DNA of 24,062 bases from a virus, in the IMG/VR virus record IMGVR_UViG_3300041583_000333, positions 1-24,062 of that record; one strand, 5' to 3'. Shown one piece after another: positions 1,744 through 16,636 of this stretch. Every line of letters starts with the position of its first letter. Positions within the stretch are counted from its first letter, which is position 1. The notes beneath the pieces were generated by a model, which was not told where the DNA came from, searched no databases, and saw only the letters and a program-made list of their open reading frames with translations. Both the position numbers and the translations under genes were made by a program.

Positions 1744-2140
1744 ATGACAAAGGAAGAACAAAAGAAAGAAAGAAAAAGACTTTATGATATAGAATATAGA
1801 AAGAGAAACAAAGAAAAATTAAAATTACTTAAAAAATTCTATTAATAGATCAAATTATACTAAGAAGAAAAATACTATATATATATATATACTTGGTTGT
1901 TCTTATGAAGATTTTTCGACACACATTGAAAGTTTATTTGAAGATTGGATGAATTGGAATAATCATGGAAACCCTATTGATGGAATATATACAATAAATA
2001 AAACCTGGGATATTGATCACATAATTCCACTATCTTCAGCTAAAACAGAAGAAGATATAATAAAATTAAATCACTACACTAACCTTAAACCACTCTGTAC
2101 TTATTACAACAGATTTATAAAAAAAGATAAAATTATATAA
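1744..2140 (+). pseudogene. Frameshifted HNH homing endonuclease remnant
   Basis: The first frame opens at ATG 1744 with a basic MTKEEQKKERKRLY start, typical of phage HNH endonucleases, and stops at 1845 after 33 residues. The family signature then continues in the +1 frame, open from 1823: LGCSYEDFSTHIESLFEDW from 1892, then WDIDHIIPLSSAKTEED, LNHYTNLKPLC and a final KKDK, ending at 2140. The DH and N residues of the HNH fold are still present in the second frame. The middle segment seems shortened, and an (AT)n run at 1876-1891 sits near the break, so a deletion plus frameshift is likely. Translation of the C-terminal part from an internal ATG at 1949 cannot be excluded but would lack the DNA-binding front. 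Confidence 0.8.
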
Positions 2141-2496: not shown

Positions 2497-2533
2497 CCAA
2501 TTACCAGTATTACCGCCAATTACCAGTATTACC
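2497..2533 (-). repeat. 19-bp tandem duplication across the terminase stop codon
   Basis: CCAATTACCAGTATTACC occurs at 2497-2514 and again at 2516-2533, separated by one G. The repeat length of 19 shifts the frame, so the terminase ends GNTGNWR. The other frame would continue GNTGNWFGTSK before a stop. Confidence 0.8.
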
Positions 2534-4729
2534 ATAACCACCACCTTTGTTACGATTCATATATTGTCTTCTAATTTTAAGAACTTGGCCATAATCAACA
2601 CCCTCTACATAATCAATATTCTTTAAACACTCATTTATATAGGTCATAAGATCTCTATCTGTAAATTTACTAGACCATTCTTCAACCATTTCTCTAAACT
2701 CATTCTTCTTAAATATAGAGGTTGTATTAACAATAGTCATTACAGTATCATCATGACCAACATCAGCAGCATACCTAACATTACCAGCAGTTGTTGTGTG
2801 TTTAACAAATGTTGTTATTTCCCTAATTGTCTCTTCATTATTTATAGAGAACCCACCAGAAACCATCAAATCTTGATAATCTTTAACCAATAGGTTTTTA
2901 TTCTCACCTACTTTTAGACCTACTTTTTCCTCAGTAGCATCAGCTCTGTGTTTATATCTAACAAAAACAGAAGATCCATAACCATTATTACCATCAAAAA
3001 CATGTGGCATCTCAGCTAAGAGTGTGTTACCATAATTATTTAACTCTAATACAACCTTAACATTATCCGGATTAAAATATTCAAATACTATAAGATATAA
3101 AATCTCAGCTAATTGTTTAACCGAGACTAAATTACTTCTAAATATTCCAATTTGTTCCAATTTGAAGAAATCAGTTATAGATGTATAAGCAGCCTTTTGA
3201 TTATCAATAACTTCCTTTGTTTTGTTGTTTATTCTAAATATGTTTATTACCGAATAATCCTGACCAAGACCTTCTGCTAAATCGACTGATAGAACAATCT
3301 TATAATCCTTTCTTATCAATGGTATATAAGAATCATCATCAACCCACTTCAAATCATTATAACTAAATCTAAGTTTTTCAAACTCAGGAATCTCTTCATG
3401 TATATAATTCTTCTTAGACTTTAACAATTTATCAATTATTGCCTCATTTAATAAAGATTTACTAGCATTTATAAATCTTAGACCATACTCTTGATTAAAA
3501 GCATCCTCACCACCAATATCCTTAATAGCTTCTTCCTTCCAGGTTGTCAATTCAGATACAGCGAATAAAGGAATCTCTTCACCCTTTGAATTTAATATCA
3601 TCAATGCTCTAATTTCATCATCAGAACAATTCTCATTATTCAATACACTTATAATATCCTTTTGTAAATCAATATTATAACCCATTGATACCTTAGTTAT
3701 TTCACCAAATTTTTCAGTAAGGAAGTCAAGAACGTATTCTTTATCAATACCCTGCTCATATAATTTATGATCATTCAATCTAACATAAGTAACAAACCTA
3801 CCAGGAACTTGATACCAATAAACTCTATGAGCCTTAAAGTTATTCTTCCTAGGATCACCATCTGGTCTCTCACCATCAGTAAGTAATTTATGAAATAAAT
3901 TCATACCATTAGGAGTTGATGTTATTATAATTTTAGAATTTTTAATTGCTGATACCGTTGGGAATACGGCTGTGTAATATGGTTCGATAATATTGGATGG
4001 TATATGTGCAAACTCATCAAGATATAAAACATCAATCGTAAATCCAATCGCTGGTGTCTTTGTTCTAGCTGATGTCTTTATTCTACAACCATTATCAAAA
4101 GTTAATGATTTTTGATTCCAAGTTTTTATACCAGGTTTCAAGAAAAATGGTAATAATGTATAAATTGATTTTATCTTATCAACAATCTCAACTGCTGTAT
4201 CACCTTTATTCGCAACTATCATCACATTTTTATCATTATTAAATAGTATTGTATGTAACATGAATATAGAAGACGATATAGTATTATGTGATAAAATACC
4301 ATTTGTGTAGTATCTGTGGTTTGTATGATCAATGGATAAATCAAACATAGAAGATTTAAAATTTTCTAAAGTTAGAGATAATACTTTCTGTATACCATTT
4401 TCTGTTTGTATCGATGATCCAATTTTTATGTCTTTCGCGAATACTTCCTTAAAATTTTGGTCAAAAAGAATATGATTATCCGCACAAGATAAGTTAAAAT
4501 CTTTAGTCCTAACTTTGTAATGTGTATAGGGTTGTGTTATATGTATATCGGTCACTGATTCATAACCAGTATCAGATTTGACCTTAATATCTAATAACTC
4601 TATTGAATTTAATATCTTCTTTGATATATCACACTCATCAAGAGAAATTTTTCTATATTCAAAATATTCGATATTTTGTATCGAATATTTTATTAACCTT
4701 ATTAAAAATTTCTTAATTCTACCCAACAT
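2510..4729 (-). CDS. Terminase large subunit, C-terminal part, fused behind a C-terminal split-intein half
   Basis: 739 residues. Residues 1-149 are an intein C-half: block B-like SCADNHILF (~81-89), block F-like MFDLSIDHTNHRYYTNG and block G GILSHN, ending at N149. T150 then begins the terminase extein with the Thr of the P-loop. The extein carries Walker B LYLDE (D238, E239), the coupling motif STPNG (~271-275) and a gp17-type RNase H-like nuclease with D483 (SVDLAEG), E562 (VLELNNYG) and D660/D661 (GHDD). Together with the 117-residue N-extein at 5901-6251, the spliced protein would be 707 residues, against 610 for T4 gp17. It starts 11 nt inside the end of the homing endonuclease gene. 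Alone it lacks GK of the P-loop and cannot be an ATPase. Confidence 0.96.
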   Translation of the reverse strand: MLGRIKKFLIRLIKYSIQNIEYFEYRKISLDECDISKKILNSIELLDIKVKSDTGYESVTDIHITQPYTHYKVRTKDFNLSCADNHILFDQNFKEVFAKDIKIGSSIQTENGIQKVLSLTLENFKSSMFDLSIDHTNHRYYTNGILSHNTISSSIFMLHTILFNNDKNVMIVANKGDTAVEIVDKIKSIYTLLPFFLKPGIKTWNQKSLTFDNGCRIKTSARTKTPAIGFTIDVLYLDEFAHIPSNIIEPYYTAVFPTVSAIKNSKIIITSTPNGMNLFHKLLTDGERPDGDPRKNNFKAHRVYWYQVPGRFVTYVRLNDHKLYEQGIDKEYVLDFLTEKFGEITKVSMGYNIDLQKDIISVLNNENCSDDEIRALMILNSKGEEIPLFAVSELTTWKEEAIKDIGGEDAFNQEYGLRFINASKSLLNEAIIDKLLKSKKNYIHEEIPEFEKLRFSYNDLKWVDDDSYIPLIRKDYKIVLSVDLAEGLGQDYSVINIFRINNKTKEVIDNQKAAYTSITDFFKLEQIGIFRSNLVSVKQLAEILYLIVFEYFNPDNVKVVLELNNYGNTLLAEMPHVFDGNNGYGSSVFVRYKHRADATEEKVGLKVGENKNLLVKDYQDLMVSGGFSINNEETIREITTFVKHTTTAGNVRYAADVGHDDTVMTIVNTTSIFKKNEFREMVEEWSSKFTDRDLMTYINECLKNIDYVEGVDYGQVLKIRRQYMNRNKGGGYGNTGNWR
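4283..4729 (-). other. Split intein C-terminal half (IntC, 149 residues)
   Basis: This is codons 1-149 of the downstream terminase ORF. It ends ...NGILSHN with T as the first extein residue, the standard His-Asn/Thr splice junction. Block B (SCADNH) lies in this half, so the natural break is upstream of block B. The first ~30 residues (MLGRIKKFLIRLIKYSIQ...) are basic and hydrophobic and may help the halves associate. Confidence 0.92.
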
Positions 4730-5690
4730 CTAATTGTTTTGATTTTAATATATAATTAACCAACTTTAAAATGGTTAATTCTTTATTATCATTATAATCC
4801 TTTTCACTTATATGTATTACACTATAACCAGATTTAACTATATTATCATCCCTTTCTCTTTCTCTTTTATTATTCTCCACATTATTCCTGTGATAATAAG
4901 TGCCATCAAATTCCAATATTAAATTTAAACTAGGTATAAAAAAATCTGGTAATATATACGATTTATTCAAGCGTAACCGATATTCATAATTATTTTTACT
5001 CTCATGAATATTATCATTCTTATCAAGCTTTGCGAAATAAACTTTATCAACAAACCCAACAGACAATAATTCACTATATAGTGATATAAACATTTCTTGG
5101 CTTATTTTACTATAATTTACTTTCTTATAATTACTTAACCACTTTTCTTGTCTATCAACCCATCTTTTATATCCCTTATCATTTCCATATTTTTCAATAC
5201 ATTTTTCTAATGAGAATGTTGTCTGTCTATCTCTTAGTAGTTTCTCCGATTCCAATTCCGAATACCCCTTATTTATATAATATTGTAACGTGGTATCAGA
5301 AACTCTATACTTGATAGACTCCTTCACAAAGTAACTAATGTGTGATTTTATATCACCAATACCACTATATTTAATAAAGTCTTTAGAAAAGGGACTTCTA
5401 CTCCTCCTATCCAATTCAGTAGTATTAGACTTATGATTTGGGTTTTTATCACCCTTTATTTTTTCCGAAAACATCTTTCTATATTTTTCCTTTCTCATAT
5501 GCTTACCACTATTTAAAGTGGTTTTATCTTTATCTGATATCGCCATTATTGGAGCACCTGGATATAATCTCTTATATTCACCTGTTTTCATATCATTATG
5601 AGAATGTTTTAGATGTCTACCATATATTCTTTTACATTGATCACCACAAATTCTACAAGTAACACTTTCTTTATTATCATCTATTTTCAT
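4719..5690 (-). CDS. Free-standing Vsr/EDxHD-type homing endonuclease in the split-intein gap
   Basis: 323 residues. The N-terminal C2H2-like finger CRICG...RHLKHSH (C12, C15, H26, H31) resembles those of phage homing endonucleases. A GDKNPNHK segment (~80-87) and SPFSKDF (~99-105) follow, a NUMOD-like DNA-binding arrangement. The C-terminal domain (~235-320) is Vsr/PD-(D/E)XK-like, with LPDFFIPSLNLILEFDGTYYH (D262, H267), RERERDD (D281/D282) and VIHISEKDY (E296). This matches the family known to sit between halves of fractured, split-intein phage genes. It runs in the same direction as both terminase parts and overlaps the downstream part by 11 nt. By family, it should cut intein-less terminase alleles and so spread the split intein with itself. 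All visible catalytic residues are intact. Confidence 0.9.
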   Translation of the reverse strand: MKIDDNKESVTCRICGDQCKRIYGRHLKHSHNDMKTGEYKRLYPGAPIMAISDKDKTTLNSGKHMRKEKYRKMFSEKIKGDKNPNHKSNTTELDRRSRSPFSKDFIKYSGIGDIKSHISYFVKESIKYRVSDTTLQYYINKGYSELESEKLLRDRQTTFSLEKCIEKYGNDKGYKRWVDRQEKWLSNYKKVNYSKISQEMFISLYSELLSVGFVDKVYFAKLDKNDNIHESKNNYEYRLRLNKSYILPDFFIPSLNLILEFDGTYYHRNNVENNKRERERDDNIVKSGYSVIHISEKDYNDNKELTILKLVNYILKSKQLDVG

Positions 5691-5694
5691 ATAA

Positions 5695-5704
5695 TATATA
5701 TATT
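5695..5704 (-). promoter_or_regulatory. AATATATATA box before the homing endonuclease
   Basis: This minus-strand box lies only 4 nt from the ATG at 5690, much closer than the ~20 nt seen for most other boxes. If it is a promoter, the transcript would be nearly leaderless or would serve the downstream terminase part. It could also be chance AT-rich sequence. Confidence 0.25.
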
Positions 5705-5732
5705 AAAAAGTTATGGCTTCTTATCAAGTCGG

Positions 5733-6251
5733 TTAGGTGTTTTCTAAATAAAAGAGACAATCATATAATTTTATCTTTATTTTTTCTAATAATGTTAGTC
5801 TTCTTTCTTGTCCTAACATATAATAGTATATCTTACCAATACGAAAATCAAACCGAATACCATCCTTCTCAACGCTACATAAAGTATTGAAAGAAAAACA
5901 TTTACCCACCTGCCTAGATGCCATCAATATATTGAACCTACTATCAACAAAGTTATCCAACATATCTTTTTGATAATCTCTTAGTTTAATATTACCAATA
6001 CTACCATCCTCAGTCTTTACTTTACAATATTGCTCAGTGAAATAATGAACATCTAAAGCACACCTAACATACTCTTGTTGCTCAGCCGGTGTCATTTTAA
6101 ATGTTACACCAGCTCTTCTTAACCCAACCTCACTTTTCAACCAAGGATTCTGATATCGTTTAATAACAACACCATCATTTATCTTATCAGTAGCATCATC
6201 AACCAATATGGTTGTGAATATCATTTGTCTCTGTACTTGCTCTTTAGCCAT
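5733..6251 (-). CDS. Terminase large subunit, N-terminal part, fused to an N-terminal split-intein half
   Basis: 172 residues. Residues 1-117 are the N-terminal region of a gp17-like packaging ATPase, with LRDYQKDMLDNF (~90-101) and the Walker A start MASRQVGK (110-117), equivalent to SRQLGKT in T4. At C118 the sequence turns into an intein N-half, CFSFNTLCSVEKDG..., which runs 55 residues to the stop. The missing P-loop Thr is the first extein residue of the ORF at 2510-4729. The protein is therefore an incomplete ATPase that must be joined in trans. An AATATATATA box 19 nt upstream is a likely promoter, shared with the divergent gene at 6297. The homing endonuclease starts 42 nt downstream. 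Confidence 0.96.
   Translation of the reverse strand: MAKEQVQRQMIFTTILVDDATDKINDGVVIKRYQNPWLKSEVGLRRAGVTFKMTPAEQQEYVRCALDVHYFTEQYCKVKTEDGSIGNIKLRDYQKDMLDNFVDSRFNILMASRQVGKCFSFNTLCSVEKDGIRFDFRIGKIYYYMLGQERRLTLLEKIKIKLYDCLFYLENT
5736..5900 (-). other. Split intein N-terminal half (IntN, 55 residues)
   Basis: It begins with the catalytic Cys (TGT at 5898-5900) directly after GK and carries a block A-like CFSFNTLCSVEKDG. No block B TxxH-type motif follows before the stop. The last ~25 residues (LLEKIKIKLYDCLFYLENT) are amphipathic and basic. Confidence 0.92.
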
Positions 6252-12718: not shown

Positions 12719-15700
12719 ATGGCAATTCAAATTGGAAAATACAAAAGACCAGGAATCTTCATCGAAGAATTTGACCAGTCCGTAATCATCAGTCCAACTG
12801 TTGCAGGGATTACCAATCTTGTGATGGGTGTATCTAAAAAAGGACCTGTTAATACGCCGATTAGATTAACTAATATACAAGACTTAGAAGCTATCTTTGG
12901 ACAATTAGATCGTAATTTAGAAAGAAAAGGTTCTTTCTTCCACCGAACAATTGCCAAAATGTTAGAAACTTCTACTGTATATGCAATGAACTTATTACTA
13001 ACAGATGATAACTTAGATGTGATTGAATACAAATCATTATCTTCTTCGGCTGGTAGTAAAAATGATATAAAAAGAGAAGGACCTTATAGAAGATTCTTTG
13101 ACACAACAGGTTTCTGGAAAAGAGATACTGAGTCATTTATCAATTTAACAAAAAATAATACAGGATACGCAGAAAGAGCGTTTAGTCTTACTAATTTATC
13201 AGATAAGCCTATCACTACTTTTGTATTCAAATCACAATTGGTTGGTTTTAATAGAACACTACTTGAATGGTATGGTTCTGTTGAGAAGATGCCACCTTAT
13301 GTAAATGCTAATGATTTTGCGGCAGATTACTTAGTTGATGTTGTTGTTGTTGGTGGTGATTGGTCAAACTATCAAGAATTATCAGTTGATCCTAGATGGA
13401 GTCAATACTTTAATGCTTCTGGTCTTAGAAAAGGAAAAGTTAGCGAATTCGCTAATGACAGAAATGTTACTCTACTTTCTTATTACGAAGGGTTATCTTT
13501 AATCCCTTATTTTAGAGATTTGAATGGTAGAAATATATTTATAGAAACTACAATAAACAGAGATACTGACACAACTGGTTTATTCTGTGCATTTGATAAC
13601 GATTTAGTTGAACAAGACTATTACAATGGTATGTTAGACTTAATCGGTAATACAATAGTTGATGAGAACGAAACAGATATTGAATTTTTATCTTATAAAG
13701 AAACAATCTCTGAATCAATATCAATGACTAATACACCTCTTGATTTACCAGGTAATGTAACTGCTTTATTAGGTGGTACTTGGTCAGGGTATGGTTATAT
13801 TAACCAACCAACTCATGCATTTGGGGCGGTACCTACTACATCAGGAATAGTTGTTAACGAAAACAACAGAACATCTTGGTTCGGTGAAGGATCTATTTAC
13901 AATGTAACTTTAGATAATTCAACACCAGTTTCAGCATCAGCGTCAATAACCGTAACATATAATGTTGGATCAGATGCCTACTCTATAATCGGTGACTTAT
14001 ATGTTCCTGTTTCAGCAACAACATCATTAACAATTAGTGCTAATGATTACCCAGTAACAGCGGCAACTGCTTCTTATACATCAGCATTCTCGTTAGACGC
14101 GTCTGGTGAGATTGTATTAATAAACAGTTTAGCACCAAATGTAAACCCTAGTGTTTCTACAAGTGATATTATCTTAGGATATTTAACATTTGATATATTA
14201 ACTGGTGGATTTGTAAACTTAGGAAGTTTATCAGTAATTGATATCACAAACGGGACATCAGGTTATACTGATTTCAGTTTTGGTACATCATCAAATGATG
14301 ATTACTACATAACTGACTTAGGATCTGGATCATTAAAAGTAGAGTTTGTTAATACAAATTCACAACAAGATGTTAAGAACTATACTCAATACAGAAGATT
14401 CAAGATGTTTAACAGATTGGTTAGTGTTATTGATAGTCCTAACAAAAACAAAATAACAATGTCATTAGGTCCAGTATCTAATTACGATAAATATAGTTTG
14501 GAAAATGTTACTATAAGTGATATAGTAACATCAACATTAGAGAATAAATCATTTGTATTAAATACAACATTAACATCATCAGAATTATCTGATGTATTAA
14601 ATGGACATTTAGTATTCTATACAGAAGATGATGAGTTCTTATTAGGAAAAGAAGGTGTTATAACTAAAAATGAAGTTGCTGATGGAGCTGATTTAGGAGT
14701 TGTAGGTAAATACTCAAAATTCTATACAAGCTACTTTGATGGTAACATCAATACAAAAGATTTCTTCTACTCTAACAGATTATACGTTGGAAGTGGTGGA
14801 ACAGTTAATGCTGTTTTAGGAACAGATGTTAATATTACATTCATAGATGGTGAGGTTGCAACATCTGCAACATCTTCATACGCTGGATATGATTACATCG
14901 TTTTTGAATCAGACGTACCATTCTTCTCTAATGAAGTGGACCTTCAAGTTTTCGAACAATTATCGTTCCCTGGTTCAGATGTTAACAAAGGATCTTTTAC
15001 AATAGTTAGCAACACAGTTAATCCATTAGATACACCAACACAATTGGCTATCGACTTAGGATTCACTGGTAACTTCTACGCTTATCAAGTAAATGAAGAG
15101 GTTGAGTTTGAATACTTAACTGAACAAGGATTGGTATTTGATTACTTAACTAGACATTACCTTAAAATGTACCTTGATAATAATGGTATTTTAAGTGTTG
15201 AGTTCAAGGATGAGTTATTAACGTCAGATGTAGATGCTGATCCACAAGCAAATAATACATTATTTGTACAATCTGGAAAATCTAACTTCAAACAAACAAT
15301 CGAAGTTGAATTACCATCTGGATATGTTCAAGTACCTAATAAGATTTTAATAGATGGAGAGAGATACTCAGAAGTTAAAGTTGGTGATTTCTTAGAGGCT
15401 TATTATGACCCTACAGCTCTTGAAGTTGGAGAGGTACCAAGAAGACTTACAAGAATCTTGAGTAAGAGACAATATGCTGGTGATACTAGTTTAACTGAAA
15501 TCTCTTGTGATTCTAGAATAGCAACTTACAACTTCGGTGGTGATGTACAAACAATGAGGTATTTATCAGTTGATCAATACGCATTAACATACAAAGCTAT
15601 TTCAATGAAAGGATTTAAGGTTAGACAATCTTCTTTACCTGATGGAACAGAAGGAAGACAAAATCAAATACTTAATTTAGTAGCTAAAGGAACACCAATG

Positions 15701-16636
15701 TTCAAAGCTTTAATTAACAAAGAAGCATTAGACTTTAGATATTTAATTGATGGATTTGGATTAGGATTAACTGAAAGATCGAAACAACAATTAGTTGATA
15801 TATGTGGTGATAGATTGGACGCATTTGGGTTCATTAATATGCCATCTATGAGGTCATTTAAGAACTCATCCTCACCTACATTTGTTGATAGTGAAGGTAC
15901 ATTACAAGTTGAGTTTATAGCTCAAGGTGGTGACCCAGAAAGTAACCCAGCATTCCTTTACTCATTCGGTGAGGGAGCAGGAACAACTACTGTTGGTTAT
16001 TTCGCACCATATGTTACTGTGAATGATAATGGTAGACCATTAGATTTCCCACCTGCATCTTTTGTAGCAACAACTTATATGAGAAAACATATTTCTAATA
16101 TAACATCTGTTACTCCTTGGACAATAGCGGCTGGTGTAACAAACGGTAAGATTACTAACATCTCTGGTATAGAAATGGACTTTACTCAAGAAGATATCGA
16201 ATTCTTGAATCAAGCTCAAATGAACCCAGTTGTTTTCAAGAGAAATAGAGGTTATATAATTGAAACTGAGAATACATCTCAAACTCTTTACAAATCAGCT
16301 CTTTCTTTCATACACGTTAGAGAGGTATTAATTGAACTTGAAAGAGAGTTATCAAGAATGTTATTAGACTACCAATGGAAGTTTAACACTCCTGATGTAA
16401 GATCAGAAATTAAACTAAGAGCAGATGTTATCTGTGAGACTTACGTAAGTAAGAATGGTTTATACAACTTCTTTAACAAAATGGATGAAGAGAATAACAC
16501 ATCAGAAATCATTGATAACCAAATTGGTGTTCTTGATACTTATGTAGAACCGATTAAGGGTATGGGTATTATTGTTAATAACATTACTATACTTAGAACA
16601 GGAGCTATTTCTGCTGGAGGATTCATAAACTCATAA
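12719..16636 (+). CDS. Tail sheath protein (gp18-like), greatly enlarged
   Basis: 1305 residues, about twice T4 gp18 (659). The N-terminus (PGIFIEEFDQSV...TVAGITNLVMGVSKKGP) and the C-terminal ~400 residues (FPPASFVATTYMRKH, LERELSRMLLDYQWKFNTPDVRSEI, VLDTYVEPIKGMGIIVNN) are typical of contractile sheath proteins, which form the tail tube's outer contractile layer. The extra length is in the middle: ~350-880 contains a Ser/Thr-rich, beta-strand-like stretch (~395-560, e.g. PVSASASITVTYN and SATTSLTISANDY), probably Ig-like domains exposed on the tail surface. The frame is continuous and codon use is like the neighbours. A TATATATATA box lies upstream and a strong terminator follows. The sheath identity is secure; the role of the insert is inferred. 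Confidence 0.95.
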   Translation: MAIQIGKYKRPGIFIEEFDQSVIISPTVAGITNLVMGVSKKGPVNTPIRLTNIQDLEAIFGQLDRNLERKGSFFHRTIAKMLETSTVYAMNLLLTDDNLDVIEYKSLSSSAGSKNDIKREGPYRRFFDTTGFWKRDTESFINLTKNNTGYAERAFSLTNLSDKPITTFVFKSQLVGFNRTLLEWYGSVEKMPPYVNANDFAADYLVDVVVVGGDWSNYQELSVDPRWSQYFNASGLRKGKVSEFANDRNVTLLSYYEGLSLIPYFRDLNGRNIFIETTINRDTDTTGLFCAFDNDLVEQDYYNGMLDLIGNTIVDENETDIEFLSYKETISESISMTNTPLDLPGNVTALLGGTWSGYGYINQPTHAFGAVPTTSGIVVNENNRTSWFGEGSIYNVTLDNSTPVSASASITVTYNVGSDAYSIIGDLYVPVSATTSLTISANDYPVTAATASYTSAFSLDASGEIVLINSLAPNVNPSVSTSDIILGYLTFDILTGGFVNLGSLSVIDITNGTSGYTDFSFGTSSNDDYYITDLGSGSLKVEFVNTNSQQDVKNYTQYRRFKMFNRLVSVIDSPNKNKITMSLGPVSNYDKYSLENVTISDIVTSTLENKSFVLNTTLTSSELSDVLNGHLVFYTEDDEFLLGKEGVITKNEVADGADLGVVGKYSKFYTSYFDGNINTKDFFYSNRLYVGSGGTVNAVLGTDVNITFIDGEVATSATSSYAGYDYIVFESDVPFFSNEVDLQVFEQLSFPGSDVNKGSFTIVSNTVNPLDTPTQLAIDLGFTGNFYAYQVNEEVEFEYLTEQGLVFDYLTRHYLKMYLDNNGILSVEFKDELLTSDVDADPQANNTLFVQSGKSNFKQTIEVELPSGYVQVPNKILIDGERYSEVKVGDFLEAYYDPTALEVGEVPRRLTRILSKRQYAGDTSLTEISCDSRIATYNFGGDVQTMRYLSVDQYALTYKAISMKGFKVRQSSLPDGTEGRQNQILNLVAKGTPMFKALINKEALDFRYLIDGFGLGLTERSKQQLVDICGDRLDAFGFINMPSMRSFKNSSSPTFVDSEGTLQVEFIAQGGDPESNPAFLYSFGEGAGTTTVGYFAPYVTVNDNGRPLDFPPASFVATTYMRKHISNITSVTPWTIAAGVTNGKITNISGIEMDFTQEDIEFLNQAQMNPVVFKRNRGYIIETENTSQTLYKSALSFIHVREVLIELERELSRMLLDYQWKFNTPDVRSEIKLRADVICETYVSKNGLYNFFNKMDEENNTSEIIDNQIGVLDTYVEPIKGMGIIVNNITILRTGAISAGGFINS

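What the first reader, a model, noticed from the sequence alone, without database searches (positions are those of the whole stretch)
2510..6251. Terminase gene fractured by a split intein with a Vsr-like homing endonuclease gene in the gap
Seen: the N-part ORF (5733-6251) goes from terminase into CFSFNTLCSV... right after GK; the C-part ORF (2510-4729) begins with intein-like sequence ending GILSHN, then the terminase Thr; between them is a same-strand gene with Vsr/EDxHD-type residues. Known: fractured phage genes with split inteins and such nucleases, and split terminase inteins (AceL-TerL), have been described. Inference: the phage makes one packaging motor by protein trans-splicing, and the nuclease is the spreading partner of the split intein.
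Basis: partly seen in the sequence, partly recalled or inferred. Interest (0 to 1): 0.92.

Follow-up and report, generated by a model that had tools for sequence, protein, structure and literature searches.

The report
Phage packaging motor split by intein
In this giant-phage fragment the gene for the DNA-packaging motor is cut in two inside its ATP-binding loop by a split intein with a homing-nuclease-like gene in the gap, so the phage almost certainly has to join two separately made proteins to get a working motor; relatives show the same cassette moving between phages, and in some the two gene halves have drifted up to about 70 kb apart.

Summary
The reading holds. N-ORF 5733-6251 = 117 aa of T4-type terminase large subunit (TerL) ending SRQVGK, then 55 aa of N-intein; C-ORF 2510-4729 = 149 aa of C-intein ending ILSHN, then Thr and the rest of TerL (590 aa in all); a 323-aa endonuclease ORF lies between. 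In 54 of 80 TerL relatives the two parts abut with no extra base at this point (GK|T, Walker A). The C-half profile matches VidaL (1.5e-13), CatC and gp41-1 inteins; contiguous inteins sit at the same bond in Ackermannviridae and in relative L159, which carries both halves in one frame. Catalytic residues are kept across dozens of copies. In relatives the halves can be 12 kb or ~68 kb apart, or on opposite strands, excluding cis RNA splicing and readthrough there. No second intact TerL was found. All 57 distinct copies of the nuclease family adjoin a TerL intein half; cassettes nearly identical between phages with diverged exteins look like homing footprints; nuclease loss leaves the split intact. 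This is the known 'fractured gene' arrangement, here as a TerL GK|T clade of huge phages with long helical extensions, dispersed halves and allele replacement. Splicing and cleavage are untested experimentally.

The parts
5901..6251 (-). N-extein: TerL residues 1-117, ending ...MASRQVGK (Walker A up to Lys)
   Evidence: PHROG TerL matches; abuts the C-extein directly in empty-site relatives
5736..5900 (-). N-intein half, 55 aa, CFSFNTLCSV...LTLLEKIKIKLYDCLFYLENT, with a conserved helical tail
   Evidence: Cys1 in 66/66 sequences; aligns in frame with the N-part of the contiguous intein of L159; helix in the L159 model
5733..5735 (-). TAA stop of the N-half ORF
4719..5690 (-). Homing-endonuclease-like gene, 323 aa; residues 1 to ~165 zinc-finger/DNA-binding part, residues ~190-323 Vsr/EDxHD-like nuclease part
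   Evidence: phrog_15137 endonuclease 2.8e-7, phrog_3339 homing endonuclease 1.2e-5; DUF559 2.9e-4, MTES_1575 1.4e-4, ROS_MUCR 0.0017; Vsr 0.012; I-Bth0305I fold match E 0.057; invariant C12, C15, H26, H31 and E236, D249, E260, G263, H267
4283..4729 (-). C-intein half, 149 aa: N-terminal helix (MLGRIKKFLIRLIKYSIQNIEYFEYR), block B CADNH, block F MFDL..NHRYYT, block G NGILSHN
   Evidence: VidaL 1.5e-13, CatC 1.4e-8, gp41-1 1.2e-6; hhalign 99.9% to Ackermannviridae TerL inteins; Intein_splicing / intein_Cterm
2513..4282 (-). C-extein: TerL from the Walker A Thr onward, 590 aa
   Evidence: Terminase_6N 2.6e-13, phrog_2 1.9e-26
4719..4729 (-). 11-nt overlap of the nuclease gene's end with the C-half's start (8 or 25-28 nt in most relatives); possible translational coupling

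Best explanation
A mobile split-intein cassette sits at the GK|T bond of the Walker A motif of terL. The phage makes a TerL(1-117)-IntN protein and an IntC-TerL(118-707) protein. The halves find each other (probably helped by the conserved helical tail of IntN and helical head of IntC), fold into one Hint domain and splice in trans with Cys1, the terminal Asn and the extein Thr+1 as the reacting residues, rebuilding an intact Walker A loop; without ligation an ATPase active site is unlikely to form. The nuclease encoded in the gap is the dedicated homing partner: it would cut the uninterrupted terL site of co-infecting phages so that the IntN-nuclease-IntC cassette is copied in. Shown here by sequence: precise insertion, intein homology, residue conservation, purifying selection, exclusive association of the nuclease with this site, and transfer footprints. 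Inferred: association through the helices, actual trans-splicing, cleavage of the empty site.
For: Exact empty site in 54/80 relatives. C-half profile: VidaL 1.5e-13, CatC 1.4e-8, gp41-1 1.2e-6; Intein_splicing in 18/18 members. Contiguous inteins at the same bond in Ag3, LIMEstone1, VAP7, VPALA and others (hhalign 99.9%, E 1.2e-33) and in L159, whose single ORF carries both halves; the L159 model matches T4 gp17 (3.7e-7) and VidaL (1.0e-6). Cys1 66/66, Thr+1 78/78, terminal Asn 77/78, penultimate His 75/78 (contiguous copies included). dN/dS of both halves mostly 0.07-0.26. Halves 12.4 kb apart in LR756501, ~68 kb apart in G010, ~22 kb apart on opposite strands in G009. No second TerL with intact Walker A in 18 records searched. 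N and C halves co-vary beyond the exteins: partial Mantel r=0.38, p=0.001. Nuclease: 57 distinct family members all adjoin a TerL intein half, 49 lie between both. Footprints: L122/L126 cassette 98-100% identical with exteins 88%, switching at both edges; L017/L138 and L020/L145 similar. Nuclease-less gaps hold remnants of a nuclease gene.
Against: No experimental splicing or cleavage data. The N-half alone matches no intein model. Block B has Ala (CADNH) in place of the usual Thr of TxxH. LR756501, LR756500 and L202 carry altered C-terminal residues (NLN, SSQ, SLN), so splicing may differ there. The nuclease matches to Vsr/EDxHD are weak and its model is poor (pLDDT 58). The rest of the window phage's genome is not held, so a second terL outside these 24 kb cannot be excluded for it specifically.
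Confidence: 0.9

Rival explanations
1. The insertion is a group I (or II) intron with a homing-endonuclease ORF, spliced at the RNA level, as reported for terL of Vibrio phage ICP1.
For: ICP1 terL is split into a short N exon and a long C exon by an RNA intron, with a homing endonuclease nearby (PMC10448857); introns are common in huge gut phages (PMC12363816).
Against: No Rfam match in window, L015, L016, L082. The sequence on both sides of the gap is in frame, under purifying selection and homologous to contiguous inteins translated as one ORF. In L016 the gap is 47 nt, in L130 the halves overlap by 32 nt, and in G009 they lie on opposite strands.
Confidence: 0.02
2. The two polypeptides work as an unspliced two-chain motor; the intein parts are dead remnants.
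For: A ribonucleotide reductase split by a homing endonuclease works as two chains (cited in PMC10448857). LR756501, LR756500 and L202 have lost canonical C-terminal intein residues.
Against: The break is between Lys and Thr of the Walker A loop, where complementation without a peptide bond is implausible (inference). Catalytic residues are kept in nearly all copies over deep divergence and both halves are under purifying selection.
Confidence: 0.05
3. The split intein is real, but the middle nuclease is an independent parasite of the gap and not the driver of intein spread.
For: Split inteins persist without it (L016, L123, L130, L137, L141, L167, LR756501), and an unrelated reverse-strand DUF7487 nuclease occupies the gap in L009 and L015. 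In L004/L119 the transferred tract holds IntN and nuclease but not IntC.
Against: The nuclease family was found only at this site, and in L122/L126, L017/L138 and L020/L145 the whole cassette shares higher identity than the exteins, with edges at the intein boundaries.
Confidence: 0.15

Closest known systems
Fractured genes with split inteins and Vsr-like/EDxHD homing endonucleases (Dassa et al. 2009, NAR 37:2560; from my own knowledge, cited in PMC7090010, full text not held)
   Same: Essential gene broken by a split intein with a free-standing Vsr-like nuclease gene in the gap.
   Different: Host-gene site and sequence (TerL GK|T, Thr+1); IntN mostly 51-62 aa with long helical extensions; some members have lost the nuclease or have halves 12 to ~70 kb apart.
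AceL-TerL / GOS-TerL / Cat-TerL and VidaL atypical split inteins
   Same: Split before block B; C-half profile matches VidaL 1.5e-13 and CatC 1.4e-8.
   Different: AceL and GOS IntN are 25 and 37 aa with Cys+1 (PMC11766414); here IntN is 55 aa with Thr+1, and the first ~41-46 residues of IntC fall outside the match to VidaL and CatC.
Contiguous TerL inteins of Ackermannviridae (Shigella phage Ag3, Dickeya phage LIMEstone1, Vibrio phage VAP7)
   Same: Same insertion bond GK|T, homologous intein (hhalign 99.9%).
   Different: One open reading frame with no gap and no nuclease inside; a different linker in place of the two helical segments.
[quoted passage not shown]
   Same: Same architecture in a jumbo phage.
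   Different: Different gene, different nuclease family.
ICP1 terL intron (PMC10448857)
   Same: terL broken near a homing endonuclease.
   Different: RNA splicing, not protein splicing.

Membership tests
Class 1 intein (Hint domain) | Nucleophile at position 1 (Cys/Ser) | tested here: met
   Cys1 in the window and in 66/66 sequences
Class 1 intein (Hint domain) | C-terminal His-Asn followed by Cys/Ser/Thr | tested here: met
   HN|T in the window; Thr+1 78/78, Asn 77/78, His 75/78
Class 1 intein (Hint domain) | Block B TxxH and block F D...H | tested here: inconclusive
   Block B is CADNH (His kept, Thr replaced by Ala); block F MFDL...NH kept
Class 1 intein (Hint domain) | Homology or fold match to solved inteins | tested here: met
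   Profile to VidaL 1.5e-13; fold of contiguous relative L159 to VidaL 1.0e-6 and gp41-1 3.3e-5
Class 1 intein (Hint domain) | Exact insertion relative to intein-free homologues | tested here: met
   54 of 80 relatives
Naturally split intein | Halves encoded by separate genes | tested here: met
Naturally split intein | Trans-splicing activity | not testable with these tools
   needs co-expression and mass spectrometry
AceL/VidaL-type atypical TerL split intein | Split before block B, so that block B lies in the C-half | tested here: met
   IntN 55 aa; block B in the C-half
AceL/VidaL-type atypical TerL split intein | AceL/GOS-like IntN size and Cys+1 | tested here: not met
   55 aa and Thr+1 here vs 25/37 aa and Cys+1
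Fractured gene (Dassa type) | Nuclease gene between the two halves | tested here: met
Vsr-like / EDxHD homing endonuclease | Catalytic domain homologous to Vsr / I-Bth0305I | tested here: inconclusive
   Vsr E=0.012, below cut-off; PDB Vsr E=0.85; I-Bth0305I fold E=0.057, prob 0.94
Vsr-like / EDxHD homing endonuclease | Cleaves the uninterrupted target site | not testable with these tools
   only mobility footprints
Group I/II intron | Rfam covariance match in the insertion | tested here: not met
   no match at gathering scores

The most novel reading that the evidence does not exclude
A huge-phage clade in which TerL is a stably two-gene protein: split-intein halves that outlive their nuclease, disperse across the genome (12 to ~70 kb, either strand), and exist as at least two sequence classes (LEK-type and DYIKY-type N-half tails) that replace one another as matched pairs between otherwise near-identical phages. 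If the classes do not cross-splice, co-infecting phages would be incompatible in motor assembly, so the intein pair would act as a lineage-specific lock on packaging.
Probability: 0.15. Interest if true: 0.8.

Novelty: new variant of a known kind. Interest (0 to 1): 0.64.

Why it matters
It gives a natural series in one essential gene: empty site, contiguous intein, split intein with nuclease, nuclease eroded, nuclease gone, halves dispersed. That makes the origin and persistence of split inteins testable. It also means annotation pipelines will report truncated TerL for such huge phages, and TerL is a standard phylogenetic marker. The roughly 60 natural pairs, with long helical segments and two N-half classes, are candidates for new trans-splicing tools.

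Tried and rejected
Rfam intron search: nothing. N-half against the PDB: only chance hits to designed knot proteins. A first mixed alignment (A5) misplaced the N-halves; replaced by A6, anchored on extein sequence. The nuclease model is too poor for a firm fold assignment: the top hits by E-value are mitoribosome proteins, the nuclease hits are ranks 4, 5, 8 and 12, and none reaches E<=0.001. Papers for Dassa 2009, I-Bth0305I and VidaL are not held. A genome-contig scan with the C-half found only six distant hits in MAGs, no clear host clue. A suspected intact second TerL in LR756501, LR756500 and G016 turned out to be ATPase-only paralogs with the Walker A Lys lost (SRQMGI).
Full report
Check of the observation. 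On the minus strand, in order: ORF 6251-5733 (172 aa), ORF 5690-4719 (323 aa), ORF 4729-2510 (739 aa). The outer two hit terminase large subunit families. The 1618-bp insertion (4283-5900) falls between Lys and Thr of the Walker A motif...MASRQVGK|CFSFNT... and ...TNGILSHN|TISSSIF....

Exact empty site. A viral-contig scan with the C-ORF gave 80 loci. In 54 the N-extein and the C-extein abut with no extra base; 24 carry the split intein; two are truncated. Two uncultured huge phages, LR745206 (635 kb) and LR756502 (642 kb), are also empty. So the insertion is precise and polymorphic among relatives.

Intein identity. A profile of 18 C-halves (A1) finds, in the PDB, VidaL (1.5e-13), the engineered consensus CatC (1.4e-8) and gp41-1 (1.2e-6). 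Pfam Intein_splicing is seen in all 18 members, best 3e-8; TIGR01443 in 15. tblastn of the C-half in phage records found contiguous TerL inteins in Ackermannviridae at the same GK|T bond, hhalign probability 99.9%. L159 (IMG/VR) has both halves in one 194-aa intein inside one ORF; the halves of split relatives align to it, the N-half of L144 best. L156 is a second contiguous case. The AlphaFold model of the L159 segment (mean pLDDT 74) matches the T4 gp17 ATPase and VidaL. In it the region where the split lies is one long helix (residues 117-148), but confidence there is modest (block means 45-76); I infer, without test, that these helical segments help the halves associate. The N-half by itself matches no library model, so its identity rests on the contiguous relatives.

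Conservation. Over 78 distinct C-halves and 66 readable N-halves (contiguous copies included): Cys1 66/66, Thr+1 78/78, terminal Asn 77/78, penultimate His 75/78. dN/dS of IntN and IntC is mostly 0.07-0.26, with higher values in a few close or recombinant pairs (a simple pairwise count, often at saturated dS).

Necessity of trans-splicing. No other TerL with an intact Walker A was found in the 18 records searched, most of which are fragments; LR756501, LR756500 and G016 carry ATPase-only paralogs with SRQMGI in place of the GK motif. The complete genome of the window's own phage is not held. In relatives the halves can be far apart: 12.4 kb in the 735-kb LR756501, about 68 kb in G010, and about 22 kb on opposite strands in G009. 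This rules out cis RNA splicing or readthrough for those members. Rfam finds no intron.

The nuclease. The middle ORF has an N-terminal zinc-finger-like part (C12, C15, H26, H31 invariant) and a C-terminal domain with E236, D249, E260, G263 and H267 invariant. Weak matches to Vsr, DUF559 and MTES_1575 and to the I-Bth0305I, PvuRts1I and AbaSI folds make it Vsr/EDxHD-like rather than a proven EDxHD enzyme. A scan with its profile alone gave 52 loci. After merging with the other loci, 57 distinct copies remain (58 sequences, of which L081 is the window again, reversed) and every one adjoins a TerL intein half: 49 between both halves, the rest mostly at contig ends (L208 has its N-half but no C-half within 4.8 kb). 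Two alternative catalytic domains are joined to the same N-terminal part. The C-half start codon usually lies inside the end of the nuclease gene (overlap 8 or 25-28 nt; 11 in the window).

Mobility. L122 versus L126: cassette 98-100% identical, both exteins 88%, changing at both insertion edges. L017/L138 and L020/L145 show the same with older transfers. L004 versus L119 share IntN and nuclease at 95% while exteins and IntC are 65-70%. L022/L147 versus L024/L025 have exteins 97-100% identical at the protein level but IntN 27-29%, IntC 50-51% and nuclease C-domain 54%, with the nuclease N-domain 90-95%: the intein alleles were exchanged. Distances of IntN follow IntC (partial Mantel 0.38, p 0.001) and not the exteins once IntC is accounted for (0.04-0.07), while the nuclease N-domain follows the exteins (r 0.81-0.86). 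That is what one expects if the halves must match each other and the DNA-binding part must match its terL target; it is correlation, not proof.

Loss of the nuclease. The gap is 47 nt in L016, 284 nt in L018 and 76-82 nt in L123, L137, L141 and L167; in L130 the halves overlap by 32 nt. The gaps of L017, L137, L141 and L167 hold sequence that reads as 3' remnants of the nuclease (L017 clearly, HEG profile 70 bits; the others by eye); L016 and L018 hold remnants of the reverse-strand DUF7487 nuclease that is intact in L015. The split therefore persists after the nuclease is gone.

Comparison with known systems. This is the fractured-gene arrangement known from metagenomes, in terL, related to AceL-TerL and VidaL. 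It differs by site (GK|T, Thr+1), IntN length, helical extensions, and the population-level series above. Al-Shayeb et al. 2020, who built a TerL tree for huge phages, do not mention inteins in the main text. I did not find this locus described in the papers held, but several key papers are not held, so novelty of this clade is likely rather than certain.

Verdict. Supported; new variant of a known kind. Trans-splicing and cleavage remain to be shown at the bench.

Noticed in passing
L096 (LR756501 record 699854-701026); LR756500 within L083; L222 1475-2374: ATPase-only TerL paralogs with the Walker A Lys lost (SRQMGI) in three huge phages that also carry the split TerL; function unknown.
   Followed up: partly
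L024-L027, L038 (C-extein); insertions of similar size in L153/L154 and L164: A second, contiguous intein of about 340 aa in the TerL nuclease domain (GNDD|C...HN|C), with LAGLIDADG-like motifs by eye; in these phages TerL would need one trans- and one cis-splicing event.
   Followed up: partly
L091 (Vibrio phage VP-1) ~3400-4480: TerL fractured at another site (FDQEYD|C...HN|C): the N-half is fused to a GIY-YIG-like nuclease ORF and the C-half is a separate ORF; annotated as two terminase genes. The related VAP7 lacks this insertion.
   Followed up: partly
L168 / L224 (G012): In-frame TGA codons in both TerL halves read as Trp restore the conserved protein, so this phage probably uses TGA=Trp; it too has the split intein.
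   Followed up: partly
L009 4239-5966 (-), L015 4257-5981 (-): An unrelated endonuclease-like gene (DUF7487 match for the L009 copy) on the opposite strand occupies the intein gap in place of the usual nuclease.
   Followed up: partly
window 1949-2140 (+): Small 63-aa ORF with a weak HNH_4 match (E=0.0095), possibly a nuclease fragment.
   Followed up: no
window 12719-16636 (+): Very large tail sheath protein (1305 aa) with sheath homology mainly in the last ~450 residues.
   Followed up: no
L225-L230: Six contigs of bacterial genome assemblies (MAGs) encode distant relatives (29-37% identity) of the C-intein; may be phage contigs binned with hosts.
   Followed up: no
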